Below, in pieces: positions 3,945-60,267 of a DNA stretch of 64,000 bases (position 1 is the stretch's first letter; every line of letters begins with the position of its first letter). Made by a program: the position numbers and the translations under genes. The notes below the pieces were generated by a model. It was not told the DNA's origin. It ran no database searches and worked only from the letters and a program-made list of their open reading frames with translations. This DNA comes from Streptosporangium sp. NBC_01755 (GTDB lineage: Bacteria; Actinomycetota; Actinomycetes; Streptosporangiales; Streptosporangiaceae), in assembly GCF_035917995.1 (NCBI RefSeq), contig NZ_CP109131.1, forward strand, positions 1,488,001 to 1,552,000, written 5' to 3'.

Positions 3945-5021
3945 TCAGGCTTCCTTGTCCGTCACACCGGCGGAATCGAAGGTCGCGACCTCGTGCATCA
4001 CCCTGGCTGCGGCACAGACGAGCGGGTGGGCGAGCAGGCCGCCGGTGCCCTCGCCGAGTCGGAGTTCCAGCTCCACCAGGGGGCGCAGGCCCAGGTGTTC
4101 CAGGGCCGCGGCGTGACCGGGCTCGGCCGAGCGGTGCCCGGCCACGCAGTGGTCGACGACATCGGGGGCCAGTGCCGCCGCCGCCAGTGCCGCCGCCCCC
4201 GCGATGACACCGTCCAGGATGACCGGCACCCGCAGAGCGGCCCCGGCGAGGACGAACCCGGCGATCGCCGCGTGCTCCAGGCCGCCGACCGCGGCCAGCG
4301 TCTCCAGGGCGGACACCGGGGAGACGGCACCCGGCTCGCGCTCCAGGCCGTTCACCCGGAGTGCCTCGCGGACCACCTCGATCTTGCGTTCCAGGGTCTC
4401 GCCGTCGATACCGGTGCCCCTGCCGGTCACGGCCGCCGCCTCGTGCCCGGTGAACGCACAGATCAACGCGGCCGAGGCGGTCGTGTTGGCGATGCCCATG
4501 TCTCCGGTGATCAGGCAGCGGGCACCTCCGTCGACGAGGTCGCGAGCGTGCGCGATCCCGGCCTCCAGGGCCGCGACCGTCTGCTCGGGGGTCATCGCCG
4601 GCCCTCGGGACAGATCGGCCGTACCGTACGCGATCTTGCTGATCGTCAGACCGGGCGCTGGGTCGAGGTCGGCGGCCACACCGACGTCGACGACCGTCAC
4701 CGAGACACCGACCTGGGCGGCGAAGGCGTTGGCCACGGCGCCGCCCGCGAGGAAGTTGCCGACCATCTGCAGGGTGACCTCCTGCGGCCACGGGGTCACG
4801 CCCCTGGCGTGGACTCCGTGATCGGCGGCGAAGATCGCCAAAGCCGCGGGGACCGGAAGCGGCGGCGGGCTGACCGCCGCGGCCCCGGCCAGCCGTACCG
4901 CCACGTCCTCCAGGACGCCCAGCGCGCCCCTGGGCTTGGTCAGGCGGTCCTGGTGGGCTCGGGCCTCGGCGACGGCCGCCGGGTCGGCGGGGCGGATCGC
5001 CGCGATGGTCTCCTCAAGCAT
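3945..5021 (-). CDS. cobT: Nicotinate-nucleotide--dimethylbenzimidazole phosphoribosyltransferase
   Basis: CobT makes alpha-ribazole phosphate, the lower ligand of cobalamin, from nicotinate mononucleotide and dimethylbenzimidazole. The 358-residue sequence is colinear with the family: FAADHGVHARGVTPWP near the N-terminus, GDMGIANTTASAAL and GRGTGIDGETL in the middle, and the C-terminal GEGTGG motif. The second of two close ATG codons, at 5021, is preferred because GGAG lies nine bases before it and only three bases before the first. It follows the CbiX-like gene after 75 bases and precedes cysG by about 150 bases on the same strand, forming a small tetrapyrrole cluster. I see no damage. Confidence 0.95.
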   Translation of the reverse strand: MLEETIAAIRPADPAAVAEARAHQDRLTKPRGALGVLEDVAVRLAGAAAVSPPPLPVPAALAIFAADHGVHARGVTPWPQEVTLQMVGNFLAGGAVANAFAAQVGVSVTVVDVGVAADLDPAPGLTISKIAYGTADLSRGPAMTPEQTVAALEAGIAHARDLVDGGARCLITGDMGIANTTASAALICAFTGHEAAAVTGRGTGIDGETLERKIEVVREALRVNGLEREPGAVSPVSALETLAAVGGLEHAAIAGFVLAGAALRVPVILDGVIAGAAALAAAALAPDVVDHCVAGHRSAEPGHAAALEHLGLRPLVELELRLGEGTGGLLAHPLVCAAARVMHEVATFDSAGVTDKEA

Positions 5022-5095
5022 GGTCATGCGCTCCAGTCTCCCCCGAGAACAGCATTTCCGAAAAAACACGAAAGAGCCATCGAGGGGTCACCGGA

Positions 5096-6007
5096 TCACC
5101 AGGCGATGCCGCTGAGCGCCTCCTCGTAGCGCTCGATGACCACGTCGGCCAGGCCCTCGCAGTCGCCGATGACGTCGGCGCAGCGGACGTCCAGGTTCGA
5201 GTGGCCGGCGGCGTAGGCCATGGCCTGAGCCCAGACACGGTCGAGCAGACCGCCGGCGAACAGCAGGTAGGGCACGACGATCACGCGCTTGGCGCCGAGG
5301 CGTCGGCAGCGCTCGATGCCGCCGGGGACGCCGGGCGGGGTGAGGGAGACGAAGGCCGTCTCCACGGTCATGTACTCGTGGGCGTGGGTCTCCCAGAAGA
5401 GCCGGGAGACCCGGTGCACGTCGGCGTTCGTCTCGGGGCTGGTGGAGCCGTCACCGACCAGGACGACGGCGGTCTCGCCGATCTCGATGTGCTCGGGCTC
5501 CTCGTCGAGCGGCCCGGCGGCGGCGGGGACCAGCCGGAGACTGGCGACCTCGGCGGCGGCGTCGGCCAGACGCTCGGCGAGCAGCGCGAGGATGCGGGGG
5601 TCGGAGCCCAGGGGACGGCCGTAGTCGCAGGTGAGCATGGGATGCCGCTCCTGCTCGCGAGCCATCGCGGCAGGGATGTCCGTGCCGAGCCACACGTCGC
5701 CGGTGAGACTCATGGGCTGGGCCACCATCCGGTGGTGCCCACGCGCGACCAGCGAGGCGACGGAGTCGCTGAGGCGTGGCCTGGCCTTGCCGATGTAGCC
5801 ACCGGAGACGTCCGCCGCCGTCTGGTCCAGGCGGCAGCGGAGCCGATGGATGAACCTGCCGAATTCAGCGGATCCGCTGTCGTTGTGCGAGCCCTGTCCG
5901 ATAAGCAGCAGCGGCGGTTTCGTGACTCCTCCGCTCCCCGAGGAGAGCGGCTTCTCGCTTCCCTCGGGGGAGGCAGGCGACGGCCAAGCCCTGACCGCTC
6001 CAGACAT
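5096..6007 (-). CDS. Sirohydrochlorin chelatase-like protein (CbiX family) lacking the usual active-site histidines
   Basis: The 303-residue protein has the duplicated chelatase fold: a first half with LLLIGQGSHNDSG and TDIPAAMAREQERHP, and a second half with VVLVGDGSTSP and RCRRLGAKRVIVVPYLLFAGG. Family members insert cobalt or iron into sirohydrochlorin, and the neighbours cobT and cysG fit that. Odd points: the family His of the GHG motif reads Gln here (GQGSH), and the His expected before the DIPA motif is replaced (TGDVWLGTDIP). The first 30 residues are encoded across a conserved hairpin sequence at 5922-5959 that recurs elsewhere in the window, so the N-terminus may have been rebuilt by a mobile-element end. 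The ATG at 6007 has no good ribosome site. The protein may be a specialised or inactive chelatase. Confidence 0.72.
   Translation of the reverse strand: MSGAVRAWPSPASPEGSEKPLSSGSGGVTKPPLLLIGQGSHNDSGSAEFGRFIHRLRCRLDQTAADVSGGYIGKARPRLSDSVASLVARGHHRMVAQPMSLTGDVWLGTDIPAAMAREQERHPMLTCDYGRPLGSDPRILALLAERLADAAAEVASLRLVPAAAGPLDEEPEHIEIGETAVVLVGDGSTSPETNADVHRVSRLFWETHAHEYMTVETAFVSLTPPGVPGGIERCRRLGAKRVIVVPYLLFAGGLLDRVWAQAMAYAAGHSNLDVRCADVIGDCEGLADVVIERYEEALSGIAW
5922..5959 (-). repeat. Copy A of a conserved hairpin repeat, IS200/IS605-type right-end/guide-RNA-like
   Basis: On the minus strand this reads AGCGAGAAGCC, a stem-loop, then GGAGGAGTCAC. A second copy lies at 61896-61932 in the same orientation. 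The two stems differ by paired changes: CTCC/GGAG here, CCCC/GGGG there. The flanks are nearly identical. From general knowledge this pattern is typical of the 3' transposon end and guide-RNA scaffold of actinobacterial TnpB elements. It lies inside the reading frame of the CbiX-like gene. Confidence 0.6.
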
Positions 6008-55681: not shown

Positions 55682-56713
55682 GTGATCGACCTCTACACAC
55701 CTCAGGCAATATGGGGCCGAGAGCTGAAGCACTACCGGAAAGCGGCGGGGCTCACCCAGAGTCAGCTGGCCGAGAAGATCCACTTCAGCGAGTCCCTGAT
55801 CAGCGGGGTGGAGACCGGCCAGCTTCCGGCCAGCCCCGAGTTCGCCGACGCCTGCGACAAGGTCCTCAACACGGGCGGCGCCCTCCGCCGCCTTCTCGAC
55901 TGGCGAAAAGCACAACAGTTCCCGTCGTGGTTCGGTAAGTGGAGGGCAAGGGAACCAGAGGCAACCGAACTGCGCGCCTACGAACCTCTTCTGGTTCCAG
56001 GGCTGCTTCAGACCGAGGCTTACGCCCGCGTGGTAATGCATGGCGACGAGGTAGCCCTACGAGCCCGCCTGGAACGTCAGGCTATCCTCACCCGGGAGGA
56101 CCCACAGCCTCCGATCTTCCGGTGCGTCATCGATGAGGCCGTTCTCTATCGACCAATAGGCGAACCCAAGGACATGCGAGGGCAACTGGAGTATCTGTGT
56201 TCCATAATCAGTCCCGCGCTTAGCATCCAGGTGATTCCCCACGGGATGCATCCGGGTCTGCTCAGCGGGTTCACCATCGCGACCTTTGATGGTGGAATCG
56301 ATGTAGCGTACGTGGACACGGCTCTACATGGACTCACCGTCAATGATCACGAAGAAGTCCGCTACGCCATCCGGAAGTTTGAGTCCATCAGGACCGAGGC
56401 GTTGCCGCTACGCATGTCGATAGACCTCATCAAAAGGACGGCAGAGGAAAGATGGACCTGTAGGGTCGGGGGCTGGCGCGGTGGCTTCTCCTGGCGGGAG
56501 GGCCTGGGGCCTTCCTTCCGTCGGTTTCCCGGACGGGTGTGCCACCCCAGTGGCCGTGACCAGGTTCTTCGCTCCGTTTCCAACCCCCGCCACCTCGATC
56601 CGTGCATGCGGTTCTCCCGCACACGGCTCACCGACGTCGTTCACCGCCGGCATTCGGCCTTTCCCGCCAGGGCTTGCCCGCCCTGGGCGCGACGACGATT
56701 CCATACAGGCTGA
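55682..56713 (+). CDS. XRE-family regulator with DUF5753 domain, stop codon destroyed by an intron
   Basis: AAGGAGG precedes the GTG at 55682. Residues 15-70 are the HTH (WGRELKHYRKAAGLTQSQLA, HFSESLISGVETGQ), then a DUF5753 domain (YEPLLVPGLLQTEAYARVV, VLYRPIGEPKDMRGQLEYL, RTEALPLRMSIDLIKRTAEERW). The original gene ended in ACC-TGA, 259 residues. A group II intron inserted after the T at 56459 removed the stop, so translation now runs 84 codons into intron sequence. The domain core is complete, so the protein may still function with a foreign tail. Confidence 0.85.
   Translation: MIDLYTPQAIWGRELKHYRKAAGLTQSQLAEKIHFSESLISGVETGQLPASPEFADACDKVLNTGGALRRLLDWRKAQQFPSWFGKWRAREPEATELRAYEPLLVPGLLQTEAYARVVMHGDEVALRARLERQAILTREDPQPPIFRCVIDEAVLYRPIGEPKDMRGQLEYLCSIISPALSIQVIPHGMHPGLLSGFTIATFDGGIDVAYVDTALHGLTVNDHEEVRYAIRKFESIRTEALPLRMSIDLIKRTAEERWTCRVGGWRGGFSWREGLGPSFRRFPGRVCHPSGRDQVLRSVSNPRHLDPCMRFSRTRLTDVVHRRHSAFPARACPPWARRRFHTG
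56600..56629 (-). ncRNA. Group II intron domain V
   Basis: GAGCCGTGTGCGG, GAGAA loop region, CCGCATGCACGG form the conserved catalytic hairpin with the AGC triad on its 5' side. It overlaps the extreme 3' end of the reverse transcriptase frame. The further 140 bases to 56460 would hold domain VI, unusually long for this part. Confidence 0.8.
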
Positions 56714-58007
56714 TCAAGCCGAGATCGCTGAGCGAGCGTTTCAGCACGCCCCGGCCGTAGCTCCGGCTGCGCCGGTGTTTTCGGCTGAGGAACAGCGCCA
56801 GGCGCATCCAGGCGAACTCTCTGATCTTGCTAAAGCGCCGGGCAGAATGCCCGTACCGGAAATAGCCAGCCCATCCCCGCAGGAACAGGTTGACCTCCTT
56901 GGTGATCGCTTCGGTGCGAAGCAGCAGCCTGCGGCCGTCCGTGAGGTCACGGATCCGGTCGCGGGCGTGTTGCATCGCCCTGTCTGAGGGCCAGCGAGCG
57001 AGGAAAACGAACGGCCGTTTCCCGTTGAACCCGCGTGAGCGCACCAGCCGGTGGTGAAAGCCCAGGAAGTCCAGGCCTTCCCCACCGACCTCCAGGTGCA
57101 CGATGCGGGTCTTGGCGGCCTTCGGCTCCAAACCGAGTGCCGCCAGCAGCTCCGTCAGGCGGGCCAGGGCCCGCTCGGCTTGACCGCGGGACCAGCACAT
57201 CACGATCGCGTCGTCGGCATAGCGGGCCAGCACGCCGTCCGCCTCGTCCCACGCCCGATCCAATCGGTGCAGGTAGACGTTACAGAGGACGGGTGAAACC
57301 ACGCCGCCTTGTGGCGTGCCGGTGACCTCTCGCCGGATCTGTCCGTCCTCCATCACCCCGGCGCGCAGAATCACCCGCAGGAGCTTCAGGAGCGACTGAT
57401 CGCAGACGCGTTCCTCGATCGCACGCATCAACTCATCGTGCGGAATCGCCGAAAAGCAGTTGGCGATGTCCGTCTCGACCACCCACCGGCGGCCCCGCGC
57501 CTGCTCCTCAATGAGCACTTGCAGAGCATCGTGTGCTGAGCGCTTCGGGCGAAACCCGAATGAGCAATCAGCCATGTCCGCCTCGAAGACCGGTTCGAAC
57601 ACGATCTTCACAGCGGCCTGCACGATCCGATCCCGAACAGCGGGAATCGACAACGGCCGGTACTCGTCCTTCAGCCCAGGCTTGGGGATCATCACCCGGC
57701 GCGCGGGCAATGGCCGATACCGGCCCTGCCGAAGTTCCGCGGCCAACTCCTCAAGAAGCCGGACGATCCCGTACTCCTCGATGTCGGCCAGCGTGGTCGC
57801 GTCGATGCCCGGTGCGCCGTTGTTGCTGCGCACCATGACCCACCCGCGCTCCAGAACGTCTCTGCGATAGACCTTGTCCATGAGCGCGTGGAACCGACGT
57901 CCGGGATCGGCCTTGGCCGCCCGGTAGAGCACATGCTGCAAGGCGCGGACCGGATCACGCGGAACACGCGGCCCCACGGCGGCGGGAATAGCCAAAACGG
58001 CACTCAC
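56628..58007 (-). CDS. ltrA: Group II intron-encoded reverse transcriptase/maturase
   Basis: The 459-residue protein has all RT blocks: SIPAVRDRIVQAAVKIVFEP, GFRPKRSAHDAL, TDIANCFSAIPHDEL, TGTPQGGVVSPVLCNVYLH and the active-site YADD in LARYADDAIVM. The maturase (X) domain follows (FLRGWAGYFRYGHSARRFSK, SRKHRRSRSYGRG). There is no HNH endonuclease domain, so mobility would use nicks in replicating DNA. The GTG at 58007 follows GGAGGAGGGG. The frame is intact, so the intron may be active. Confidence 0.92.
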   Translation of the reverse strand: MSAVLAIPAAVGPRVPRDPVRALQHVLYRAAKADPGRRFHALMDKVYRRDVLERGWVMVRSNNGAPGIDATTLADIEEYGIVRLLEELAAELRQGRYRPLPARRVMIPKPGLKDEYRPLSIPAVRDRIVQAAVKIVFEPVFEADMADCSFGFRPKRSAHDALQVLIEEQARGRRWVVETDIANCFSAIPHDELMRAIEERVCDQSLLKLLRVILRAGVMEDGQIRREVTGTPQGGVVSPVLCNVYLHRLDRAWDEADGVLARYADDAIVMCWSRGQAERALARLTELLAALGLEPKAAKTRIVHLEVGGEGLDFLGFHHRLVRSRGFNGKRPFVFLARWPSDRAMQHARDRIRDLTDGRRLLLRTEAITKEVNLFLRGWAGYFRYGHSARRFSKIREFAWMRLALFLSRKHRRSRSYGRGVLKRSLSDLGLISLYGIVVAPRAGKPWRERPNAGGERRR

Positions 58008-58915
58008 CGAGCCCCTCCTCCACCTCAATATGCATCGACGAAGTAGCGGCCCTTCCCTCACCGCCGGTTATGTTGTCCGGTCGGCTCAAGCAGTACTACG
58101 GCCGCCTCCGACGCCCACCCGGCCAGCAATCCACTTCCCGGCGTTGACCGGTTATAGGACGCCACGCTCCGGTAACACCTTCCGCAGGTCACCGGGCCGG
58201 GGAGGGCCTCCCCAGTTCCCGCCGTCACTATCGATACGTTCCGCGCCCCATACGCCGGGGAGTTCTTCGCGGCTGCAATTTCCAGGCTCTTCGCCGCTTC
58301 CATGGCCTTCACCCCGATCACGAGGGGCTCGGCTCTCCCTTGTCCCGTCCGAAGACGGCTGAGTAACGACGCCGCAGGCTTCGCGTCATGCTACGGACCG
58401 CATCGTCGCTCCCCCTTAAGGGCTTTTGACGCTGGGCTTCGACCCCGCCCGTTTCCAGACGAAGCCGCCAGCCTGCTACCGGGCCTCCTGGCAGCTACCC
58501 GGACCGGACTTTCACCGGCAAGCGACGACGAGCTTACGAACATGCAGATCAGCCGCTATGTCACGGCTTCACCTCCAGTTCTACTGGGCGCACGAGAAGA
58601 GCTCAATGGCGTAAGTCAACTTGGACCGGCGACAACGGCGGAAACTGCGTTGAGGTCGCGGAACTCAAGGATGTCGTCGACGCTCCCGGCCACAAGGCCG
58701 AGCACCCCGAGTTGATCGCCGTACGCGATTCCAAGGACCCCGAAGGCCCCAAGCTCTTCTTCACCCCCGCCGAGTGGGATGCCTTCATCAACGGCGTGAA
58801 GGCCAACGAGTTCGACCGCGGCCACCAAGGCTGACACCCTACTTCCTCTGTCACGATCCCGGCTCGTGTGAGATCACGACAGAGGAAGCAGGCTCGTTGT
58901 GCTCCGCGTCCTCTC

Positions 58916-60047
58916 TACTGGAGCATGCCAAGGACGGTGTGCAGGGCGTCATCGACCTCTTCGATCTCGGCTGGGTCCAGACGTCCCGCGAAGTCACCCA
59001 GGCGGTGTGGGGCGACAGCCATGGTCTGCTCGACCATGATCCACGTCTGCTTGCCGAGGGGTCGCGTCCGCGCAGGTGGTGTACGAGTGTTTGAGATCGG
59101 TACCCGCGTCGCGCCTGGCTGATCGCCATTGAAAAGCGCGGCGTAGCACGTGGGGAAAAGCGCGGCGAGGGTGGTGGAGTGGTGTGGGGCCGTTCACCGG
59201 TGTCGCATCGTGCGGGGTGGGAGGTCAAAAGCGCGGCGAGGGCCGTGGAGTGGTTGGGGGCCGCTCACCGGTAACGCATCGTGCGGGGTGGTGGCGGGCA
59301 TTGGCCGGGTGTGGGTGACAGGGGGGGCGGGCCGGTGGAGCTCCGGGAGGGGGCAAAGCGGGTCATGGCGGGCGTGGAGGCGGGGCCGTGGTGGTGACGA
59401 TCGGGGATTTTCCATGATCTGGATGAGTTGGCACGCTGGGGGCGTGCGGATTCACCCCGATCAAGGAAGGCGCCACTCCCACCCCCTCGGGTGGGCCGCT
59501 TTTCGTGGTGGAAGGCCCGATTCGTCCCCGCGCCCAGCCGAGGGCGACCCGTGACCGGACGCCCCGCGGACCTTCGTACCCCGCACGGCGAGAGCCCCGC
59601 ACGAGGCGGCGGCGAGCAGCGGCGAGGAGCGGCCCCGAACCCTTCCGCACCGCGGCGGACCCGTACCGATGGGCGGTCTGGGGCCACTCCACGGTCCTCG
59701 GCGCGCTTTTGACCTTCGACCCCGCACGACGCGACACCGACGAGCGGCCCTGAACCACTCCGCCACCCTCGCCGCGCTTTTCCCCACGGACGACGCCGCG
59801 CTTTTCCACCGTGACCGGCTTACCGGATTCGGATGCTCGTACACCACGTCCATGGACGCGACCTGCCGAGGAGTTCGACCTCGGGGCGGAAAAGGGCGGG
59901 AGGCGCACTCGCCGAGGTCGGAGCGATGAGCACGGTGGAGAGATGAGCCAAGAAGTCCGACTGGAGGATTACCGGGAAACGCTCACCTCGTTACTCATGG
60001 GCCATCGCGTCACGAGGAGCACGCAGCCGATACACGTCACCACGCAC
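58916..60047 (-). pseudogene. mazF: MazF/PemK-family toxin gene, interrupted by an 804-bp element and a nonsense codon
   Basis: The GTG at 60047 overlaps the antitoxin gene by 11 bases. It encodes VRGDVYRLRAPRDAMAHE, then TAA at 59993 where the family has Gln (HEQRG), and continues RGERFPVILQSDFLAHLSTV, LIAPTSASAPPALFRPEVELLG to 59864. After the inserted element, the frame resumes at 59051 with KQTWIMVEQTMAVAPHRLG, DFAGRLDPAEIEEVDDALHT and a stop at 58916-58918. Removing the element and one target copy restores the frame exactly. The toxin, an mRNA endonuclease, is inactive. Confidence 0.88.
59060..59863. mobile_element. 804-bp palindromic non-coding element with 8-bp target duplication (MITE-like)
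   Basis: Both ends begin GGTCGCGTCC and, after six bases, GTGGTGTACGAG. The inverted similarity continues for about 190 bases on each side, with three subterminal copies of AAAAGCGCGGCG-type motifs per arm. TGCCGAGG stands directly outside at 59052-59059 and 59864-59871, an exact 8-bp duplication. Inside I find no frame that resembles a transposase; the open frames merely reflect the GC content. It must have been moved by an enzyme encoded elsewhere. Confidence 0.88.
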
Positions 60048-60267
60048 GCAGGTGCTCCGTGTCTCTCATGATCGCTTCCGCTTCGGCCCTGTCTGCGGGG
60101 TCGTTGGCCAGCCTCTTGGCTGCGACTCGGGCCCACTCCATACGGTGGAGACGCTGAGCGATGACGAGCGCTTCGCGAACGGCTTCGGTCGCCGAACGGC
60201 CATCGGAAGTCAGCTCGTTCAGAGCCTTCTCCGCCTTGGCATCGAGATCAACAGTCAACACGCCCAT
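60037..60267 (-). CDS. mazE: MazE-like antitoxin
   Basis: The 76-residue protein begins with a ribbon-helix-helix-type DNA-binding segment (VLTVDLDAKAEKALNELTSD, GRSATEAVREALVIAQ) and has a charged C-terminal tail suited to bind a toxin (DRAEAEAIMRDTEHLRAW). It precedes and overlaps the broken mazF gene. With the toxin dead, the antitoxin is an orphan and may persist as a DNA-binding repressor. Confidence 0.85.
   Translation of the reverse strand: MGVLTVDLDAKAEKALNELTSDGRSATEAVREALVIAQRLHRMEWARVAAKRLANDPADRAEAEAIMRDTEHLRAW

What the first reader, a model, noticed from the sequence alone, without database searches (positions are those of the whole stretch)
59060..59863. An 804-bp non-coding palindromic element inserted in a mazF toxin gene with an exact 8-bp target duplication
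Ends are GGTCGCGTCC with a second identical 12-base block, inverted similarity extends about 190 bases per arm, and TGCCGAGG is duplicated outside. Removing the element plus one copy rejoins VELLG with KQTWIMVEQTMA in frame. No transposase is inside. I know of no named element with this structure; the repeated AAAAGCGCGGCG subterminal motifs look like transposase binding sites.
Basis: seen in the sequence. Interest (0 to 1): 0.8.

Follow-up and report, generated by a model that had tools for sequence, protein, structure and literature searches.

The report
Bacterial foldback-like mobile element with hairpin
An 804-base non-coding mobile element, present at about two dozen places in one actinomycete chromosome, carries the end sequences of a common bacterial insertion sequence (IS256 type), long folded arms of repeated motifs and a little-varying central hairpin, and one copy has split a toxin-antitoxin gene that is also broken in other ways.

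Summary
Window 59060-59863 is one of 24 places in its own 8.15-Mb genome with this element: 20 two-ended copies, 2 one-ended, 2 fragments. Exact 8-bp target duplications flank 6 of the 20, against 0 of 380 mismatched flank pairs; three same-genus relatives have the uninterrupted mazF-like site. The ends are those of an IS256-family insertion sequence found in the genus: 1,422 bp, Transposase_mut (PF00872), exact 8-bp duplications. In the window's genome only a remnant of that IS was found. So this is a non-autonomous IS256-group MITE, unusually built: long inverted arms of a 12-base motif at 24- and 71-bp spacing in variable number, like eukaryotic Mutator/Foldback elements, around a central hairpin. 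The hairpin region varies least and the hairpin recurs, with compensatory stem changes, at older loci where no pair of these ends was found. Core variants are shuffled between copies. Why the core is kept, by selection or by exchange between copies, is not shown; some stem changes are uncompensated.

The parts
59052..59059 (.). left copy of the 8-bp target-site duplication TGCCGAGG
59060..59087 (+). left terminal inverted repeat, IS256-type (25 of 28 bases as the related IS left end)
59132..59291 (+). left arm iterons: AAAAGCGCGGCG at 59132, 59156 and 59227 (24- and 71-bp spacing; number varies between copies)
59361..59450 (+). central block of lowest variation among copies (element positions 302-391)
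59409..59468 (+). central hairpin (60 nt in the family model, 24 stem pairs in the model), occurring also at older loci with compensatory changes
59689..59805 (-). right arm iterons, inverted, motif at 59699, 59770 and 59794
59836..59863 (-). right terminal inverted repeat, IS256-type
59864..59871 (.). right copy of the 8-bp target-site duplication
58918..59058 (-). C-terminal piece of the interrupted PemK/MazF-like gene
59865..59990 (-). N-terminal-side piece of the interrupted PemK/MazF-like gene (further in-frame stops upstream)

Best explanation
The element is a non-autonomous transposable element (MITE) of the IS256/Mutator group, built like a eukaryotic Foldback element. An IS256-family transposase from a 1.42-kb IS with nearly the same 28-bp ends recognised these ends in trans, cut or copied the element and inserted it with 8-bp target duplications. 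The family spread to at least 24 places; in this genome only a remnant of the helper IS was found. The arms are tandem iterons whose number changes, probably by unequal exchange, and copies trade sequence by recombination. Shown: multi-copy dispersal, ends, duplications, empty sites, a matching IS with transposase in the genus, iteron-number variation, shuffled variants, low-variation core, covarying hairpin. Inferred: mobilisation in trans by that transposase, and present inactivity. Open: whether the hairpin core is kept because it matters to the element or the host, or because exchange between copies centres on it.
For: 24 places in one genome; 19 alignable copies at 92.6% mean pairwise identity. 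Of 20 two-ended copies, 6 have exact 8-bp duplications, 1 has 7 of 8, 1 has 6 of 8 and 1 has 8 of 9; among 380 mismatched flank pairs none reaches 7 of 8 and one reaches 6. Ends match the IS left end at 25 and 24 of 28 bases and its right end at 20 and 21 of 28. Of 9 IS stretches with both flanks held, 5 have exact 8-bp duplications; the two same-genus copies in G003 are 1,422 bp with a 427-codon open frame. The transposases of L107, L108 and L270 match PF00872 at E below 1e-137. The end pattern, 2 mismatches allowed, was found in 184 of 297 family genomes, own included; the reversed control also scores in some genomes. Three relatives have the uninterrupted site. Motif numbers vary from 2 to 8 per arm. 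Of 171 pairs of informative core sites, 68 show all four combinations, against 84 under free shuffling.
Against: No intact helper IS was found in the window's own genome; the other IS256-type gene there is 30% identical over the matched part, and no terminal repeat like the element's was seen in the 2.2 kb examined around it. Beyond the outer 28-60 bp the element shares nothing detectable with the IS, so it is not a simple internal deletion of it. Of 20 two-ended copies, 6 show no duplication and 5 match only if an end is shifted by up to 4 bases, which 39 of 380 mismatched pairs also do. No copy's left flank matched another's right flank at 7 or more of 8; two left-left or right-right inverted matches of 7 of 8 were seen and taken as chance. 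Of 9 IS stretches, 4 lack an exact duplication. No transposition was observed.
Confidence: 0.85

Rival explanations
1. The central hairpin has a function of its own (terminator or insulator, structured RNA, or DNA hairpin bound by a protein), so that resident copies are under purifying selection; the IS256 ends merely spread it.
For: The lowest-variation 90 columns hold 9 minority bases against a mean minimum of 45 in permutations, 0 of 2000 as low. On 22 copies and 300 core columns, private variants are 2 in the block's 90 columns and 38 in the other 210; all minority bases 14 and 179. Seven stem pairs change on both sides across 12 sequences, reached by 0 of 500 shuffles. The hairpin occurs at older loci where no pair of IS256-type ends was found.
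Against: The block was chosen on the same data, and uncertain alignment through the iterons raises the background. Within the element's own copies three stem positions vary without compensation: 9, 3 and 4 of 22 copies (read from the alignment). The 12 sequences were picked by likeness to both stem arms and 4 of them are element copies; related sequences can exceed shuffles. Shuffled variants fit exchange between copies, which could erase private variants; these are also few at 400-459, just outside. The hairpin model matched 3 of 16 genus genomes, 150 candidates scored in each. No terminator-like or promoter-like site was called.
Confidence: 0.3
2. Low variation at the core is caused by gene conversion or recombination centred on the hairpin, with no function of its own.
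For: Core variants are shuffled almost as freely as random columns: 68 against 84 of 171 pairs, though recurrent mutation could add to this. Shared but few private variants flank the hairpin at 400-459. Uncompensated stem variants occur in many copies.
Against: Conversion alone does not explain compensatory stem changes between old, separate loci. The low-variation block is lopsided: it begins about 50 bp 5' of the hairpin and ends inside the hairpin's 3' part, beyond which variation is high.
Confidence: 0.4
3. It is a degenerate IS256 insertion sequence that has lost its transposase gene by deletion and decay.
For: Ends and duplication length are those of the IS.
Against: The interior is unrelated to the IS beyond the outer 28-60 bp; 19 copies share the same interior; iterons and hairpin occur at loci where no pair of IS ends was found.
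Confidence: 0.05

Closest known systems
IS256 family insertion sequences (Mutator-type transposase, PF00872)
   Same: Terminal repeat sequence (24-25 of 28 bases to the left end) and 8-bp target duplications.
   Different: No transposase; 0.68-1.18 kb among the 19 aligned copies; interior unrelated.
Eukaryotic Mutator/Foldback elements: Tm1 of root-knot nematodes (PMC3169594, passages seen) and Muta1 of Aedes (PMC5225508, passages seen)
   Same: Tm1: composite inverted repeats with varying numbers of a short motif, MITE-like members, 9-bp duplications, some copies without duplications ascribed to crossing over, transposase placed with IS256/MULE. Muta1: nine copies of a 12-bp subterminal tandem repeat, called type 2 Foldback, 8- or 9-bp duplications.
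   Different: Bacterial; no autonomous member with the same arms found; common descent with these elements is not claimed.
Bacterial MITEs, e.g. MITEPsy1 and MITEPsy2 (PMC3189936, passages seen)
   Same: Short non-coding elements with terminal inverted repeats like those of an IS or transposon; MITEPsy1 duplicates its target, and its mobilisation by the IS with similar ends is thought likely there.
   Different: Those are 100 and 228 nt with 18- and 26-nt repeats; MITEPsy1 gives 4-nt duplications and MITEPsy2's is unknown. Here about 800 bp, iteron arms and a low-variation hairpin core.

Membership tests
MITE (non-autonomous DNA transposon) | multi-copy, non-coding, terminal inverted repeats | tested here: met
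   the short ORFs across it were judged not to be genes, no formal coding test was made
MITE (non-autonomous DNA transposon) | target-site duplications at insertion | tested here: met
   6 of 20 two-ended copies exact 8 bp, 3 more near; 0 of 380 mismatched pairs reach 7 of 8
MITE (non-autonomous DNA transposon) | ends shared with an autonomous element | tested here: met
   IS256-type IS in the genus and family; none intact found in the own genome
MITE (non-autonomous DNA transposon) | mobilisation in trans by that element's transposase | not testable with these tools
   needs a transposition assay
IS256 family insertion sequence | Transposase_mut transposase encoded | tested here: not met
   no transposase gene inside, no similarity to the IS interior; the element is only end-compatible
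IS256 family insertion sequence | 8-9 bp duplications and related terminal repeats (duplication size from passages of PMC3169594 and PMC5225508) | tested here: met
Foldback-type architecture | long inverted arms of tandem repeats in variable number | tested here: met
Foldback-type architecture | common descent with eukaryotic Foldback/MULE elements | not tested
   only architecture compared; kinship of the transposases is taken from passages
Intrinsic terminator (core hairpin) | GC-rich hairpin followed by a T tract | tested here: not met
   one search found none in 58900-60050; terminators without a T tract are not covered by that scan

The most novel reading that the evidence does not exclude
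A bacterial Foldback-like element whose central hairpin is under selection at resident copies: a structured RNA or DNA module older than the present IS256 ends, picked up and spread across the chromosome, so that the copies serve as dispersed cis-acting sites rather than as dead insertions.
Probability: 0.2. Interest if true: 0.7.

Novelty: new variant of a known kind. Interest (0 to 1): 0.45.

Why it matters
It suggests that the Foldback architecture known for eukaryotic Mutator relatives also arises with the bacterial IS256 family, and it offers 20-odd natural replicates in one chromosome for asking whether a non-autonomous element's interior is kept by selection or by exchange between copies.

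Tried and rejected
Autonomous long copy: the 2,070-bp copy at 674598 is the same element split by an insertion with rve and HTH transposase genes (IS3-type, name recalled), not a helper. Isolated end-like sites: of the eight listed with 0-2 mismatches outside the copies, seven were fetched (1676564, 1946129, 4391024, 4617222, 3063645, 6292266, 7431711), 4250906 was not; the list is capped. None showed a facing partner better than the background of weak matches; 7431711 is the end of the IS256 remnant. Exchange partners for copies without duplications: none found. The element elsewhere: no match in plasmids or phages; an arm-specific 26-mer, of which the first base was not checked but the other 25 stand in 16 of 19 copies, had 0 exact hits in genome contigs, where the window's own genome may be left out; an end pattern had 0 in viral contigs. 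Among 148 other genomes no near-full copy was listed, with only 3 candidates scored per genome; likewise in 5 same-genus genomes with 40 scored. Attachment-site, integron or dif readings of the hairpin were considered from memory and not pursued. A viral-contig search with an unrelated window methyltransferase found no relative. A host-wide hairpin: 3 of 16 genus genomes match the model; its 16-base arm is in 6 of 296 genomes of a class sample that, as listed, holds no other member of the genus: own genome 10 times on each strand, five others once each. Gene context by a rough GC3 scan gave no clear pattern and is not used.

What was left out of counts: the 19 aligned copies leave out L012 and L018 (one end missing), L031 (split) and L032 and L033 (fragments) of the 24. 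Of the IS stretches, L272 and L273 are left out of the duplication count because their contigs end at the IS (the 8 of 8 printed there is empty on one side); L275 is counted once, by its outer pair of ends; L110 showed one end only; L111 was fetched and not examined. Two of the five G008 hairpin sites (C34, C4) were not examined for ends. L140 has one weak end-like match, 8 of 28 bases off, 80 bp from its hairpin, against 0.35 per 6 kb at up to 9 mismatches in shuffled L137, so a decayed single end there is not excluded.

Papers: PMC3169594, PMC5225508, PMC3189936 and PMC9769881 were seen as passages only, others as search listings. That I know of no bacterial Foldback element of this kind in print rests only on the searches in the held library; two searches returned nothing.

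Full report
What is there. The 804-bp element at 59060-59863 has the ends, arms and 8-bp duplication described. The window lies in a single 8.15-Mb contig. A DNA search of that genome and follow-up found the element at 24 places: 20 with both ends, 2 with one end lost (5384957, 5502340) and 2 fragments (320002, 2587419). One two-ended copy (674598-676667) is split by an insertion with rve and HTH transposase genes. Nineteen copies aligned at 84.9-96.3% identity, mean 92.6%; L017 is the most divergent, the rest are about equally distant from one another.

Target duplications. Of the 20 two-ended copies, 6 have exact 8-bp duplications, one 7 of 8, one 6 of 8 and one 8 of 9. Five more match only when an end is shifted by up to 4 bases, and six show none. 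Control: of 380 left-right flank pairs from different copies none reaches 7 of 8, one reaches 6, and 39 match when shifts are allowed, so the shifted matches are weak. The duplicated sequences differ between copies, so this is insertion into many targets. For the window copy, the two pieces of the PemK/MazF-like gene were searched apart. In three same-genus relatives (G010, G012, G005) the two pieces overlap by 6 bases, with nothing of the element there; the open frame is 112 codons in G010 and G012 and 80 in G005. The window gene also has two in-frame stops in the 68 codons upstream of the insertion.

Whose ends. A pattern of the ends is frequent in the family (184 of 297 genomes, own included, up to 2 mismatches, some background). 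Several hits face each other 1.29-1.42 kb apart, and these stretches hold transposase-like frames; the three proteins scanned (L107, L108, L270) match Transposase_mut, PF00872. In the same genus, two copies in G003 are 1,422 bp with a 427-codon open frame and exact 8-bp duplications; over the 9 stretches with both flanks held, 5 duplications are exact, the others 7, 6, 2 and 1 of 8. The element's ends agree with the IS left end at 24-25 of 28 bases; similarity stops at 28-60 bp from the end. In the window's genome a search found only a decayed piece of this IS (match 7432091-7432348, end at 7431711) and one distant IS256-type gene. L108 comes from a contig of the same length as, and encodes the same protein as, a record of Microbispora catharanthi; other close relatives named are Sphaerisporangium, Streptosporangium and Nonomuraea. 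The host, placed in the same family by the genome search, is thus probably one of the Streptosporangiaceae (inferred).

Arms. Each arm holds AAAAGCGCGGCG at 24-bp and 71-bp spacing, inverted between the arms; the number runs from 2 to 8 per arm among 19 copies. Other species of the genus hold diverged iteron stretches, in one case (G008, 189 bp) between IS256-type ends without a visible duplication (sequence printed). In the IS stretches the motif is absent in 10 of 11; L109 has one hit.

Core. Variation falls to 9 minority bases in the 90 columns 302-391, against 47 per thousand cells overall; none of 2000 permutations had so low a window. The alignment through the iterons is uncertain and raises that background. 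In a separate alignment of the core alone (22 copies, 300 columns) the block has 14 minority bases and 2 private variants, the other 210 columns 179 and 38. The block was chosen on the same data. It overlaps a hairpin (z -9 in copy L002). The hairpin stands at four further sites in this genome, five in G008 and one in G010, and the model matched none of the 13 other genus genomes, 150 candidates scored in each. No pair of IS256-type ends was found at the seven further loci examined; L140 has one weak end-like match. Across 12 aligned sequences, 7 of 24 stem pairs change on both sides and 89% of cells pair, beyond all 500 shuffles; the slid controls reach at most 43%. Against this: 4 pairs never vary, 9 depart only by unpaired cells, the sequences were chosen by likeness to both arms, and within the element's own copies three stem positions vary uncompensated in 9, 3 and 4 of 22 copies (alignment). 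Two of the older sites lie at the inner ends of inverted arms of about 370 bp (77% alike) that flank a 2.8-kb stretch with a DDE_Tnp_1_4 transposase.

Exchange between copies. Of 171 pairs of informative core sites, 68 show all four combinations; free shuffling of the columns gives 84. Copies therefore seem to trade sequence, though recurrent mutation can add to this; it also offers a reason why some lack duplications, but no matching partner flank was found.

Reading. Best read as an IS256-group MITE of Foldback architecture. The parallel with Tm1 and Muta1, where transposases of the IS256/MULE group go with tandem-repeat arms and 8-9 bp duplications, is close (passages). Whether the hairpin core is kept by selection or by conversion remains open.

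Noticed in passing
window 56628-58061 (-) with 58386-58521 (-): Group II intron: reverse transcriptase with maturase domain and Rfam RF02003; an identical 477-residue protein lies in L034 at 4452-5885, near one of the older hairpin sites.
   Followed up: partly
L137 1200-4830 (genome 1782699-1786329): Inverted arms of about 370 bp, each ending inward in the full hairpin, flank 2.8 kb with a DDE_Tnp_1_4 transposase (IS1380-like, name recalled); looks like a larger foldback structure.
   Followed up: partly
L031 2599-4668 (genome 674598-676667): A copy of the element split by an insertion with rve and HTH transposase genes.
   Followed up: yes
L017 (genome 2426935-2428112): Longest unsplit copy, 1,178 bp, with eight iterons in the left arm.
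   Followed up: partly
L047 and L049 (G011, G009): Iteron stretches with a different central inverted repeat (GGTGTTCCGGCCGGC type) shared by two species.
   Followed up: no
L109 1950-5547 (G236): IS256-type IS with 8-bp duplication carrying a foreign insert with a 701-residue open frame.
   Followed up: no
L039 7215-7260 (genome about 4391214): Perfect 21-bp inverted repeat with 4-base loop, about 190 bp from an isolated IS-like end.
   Followed up: no
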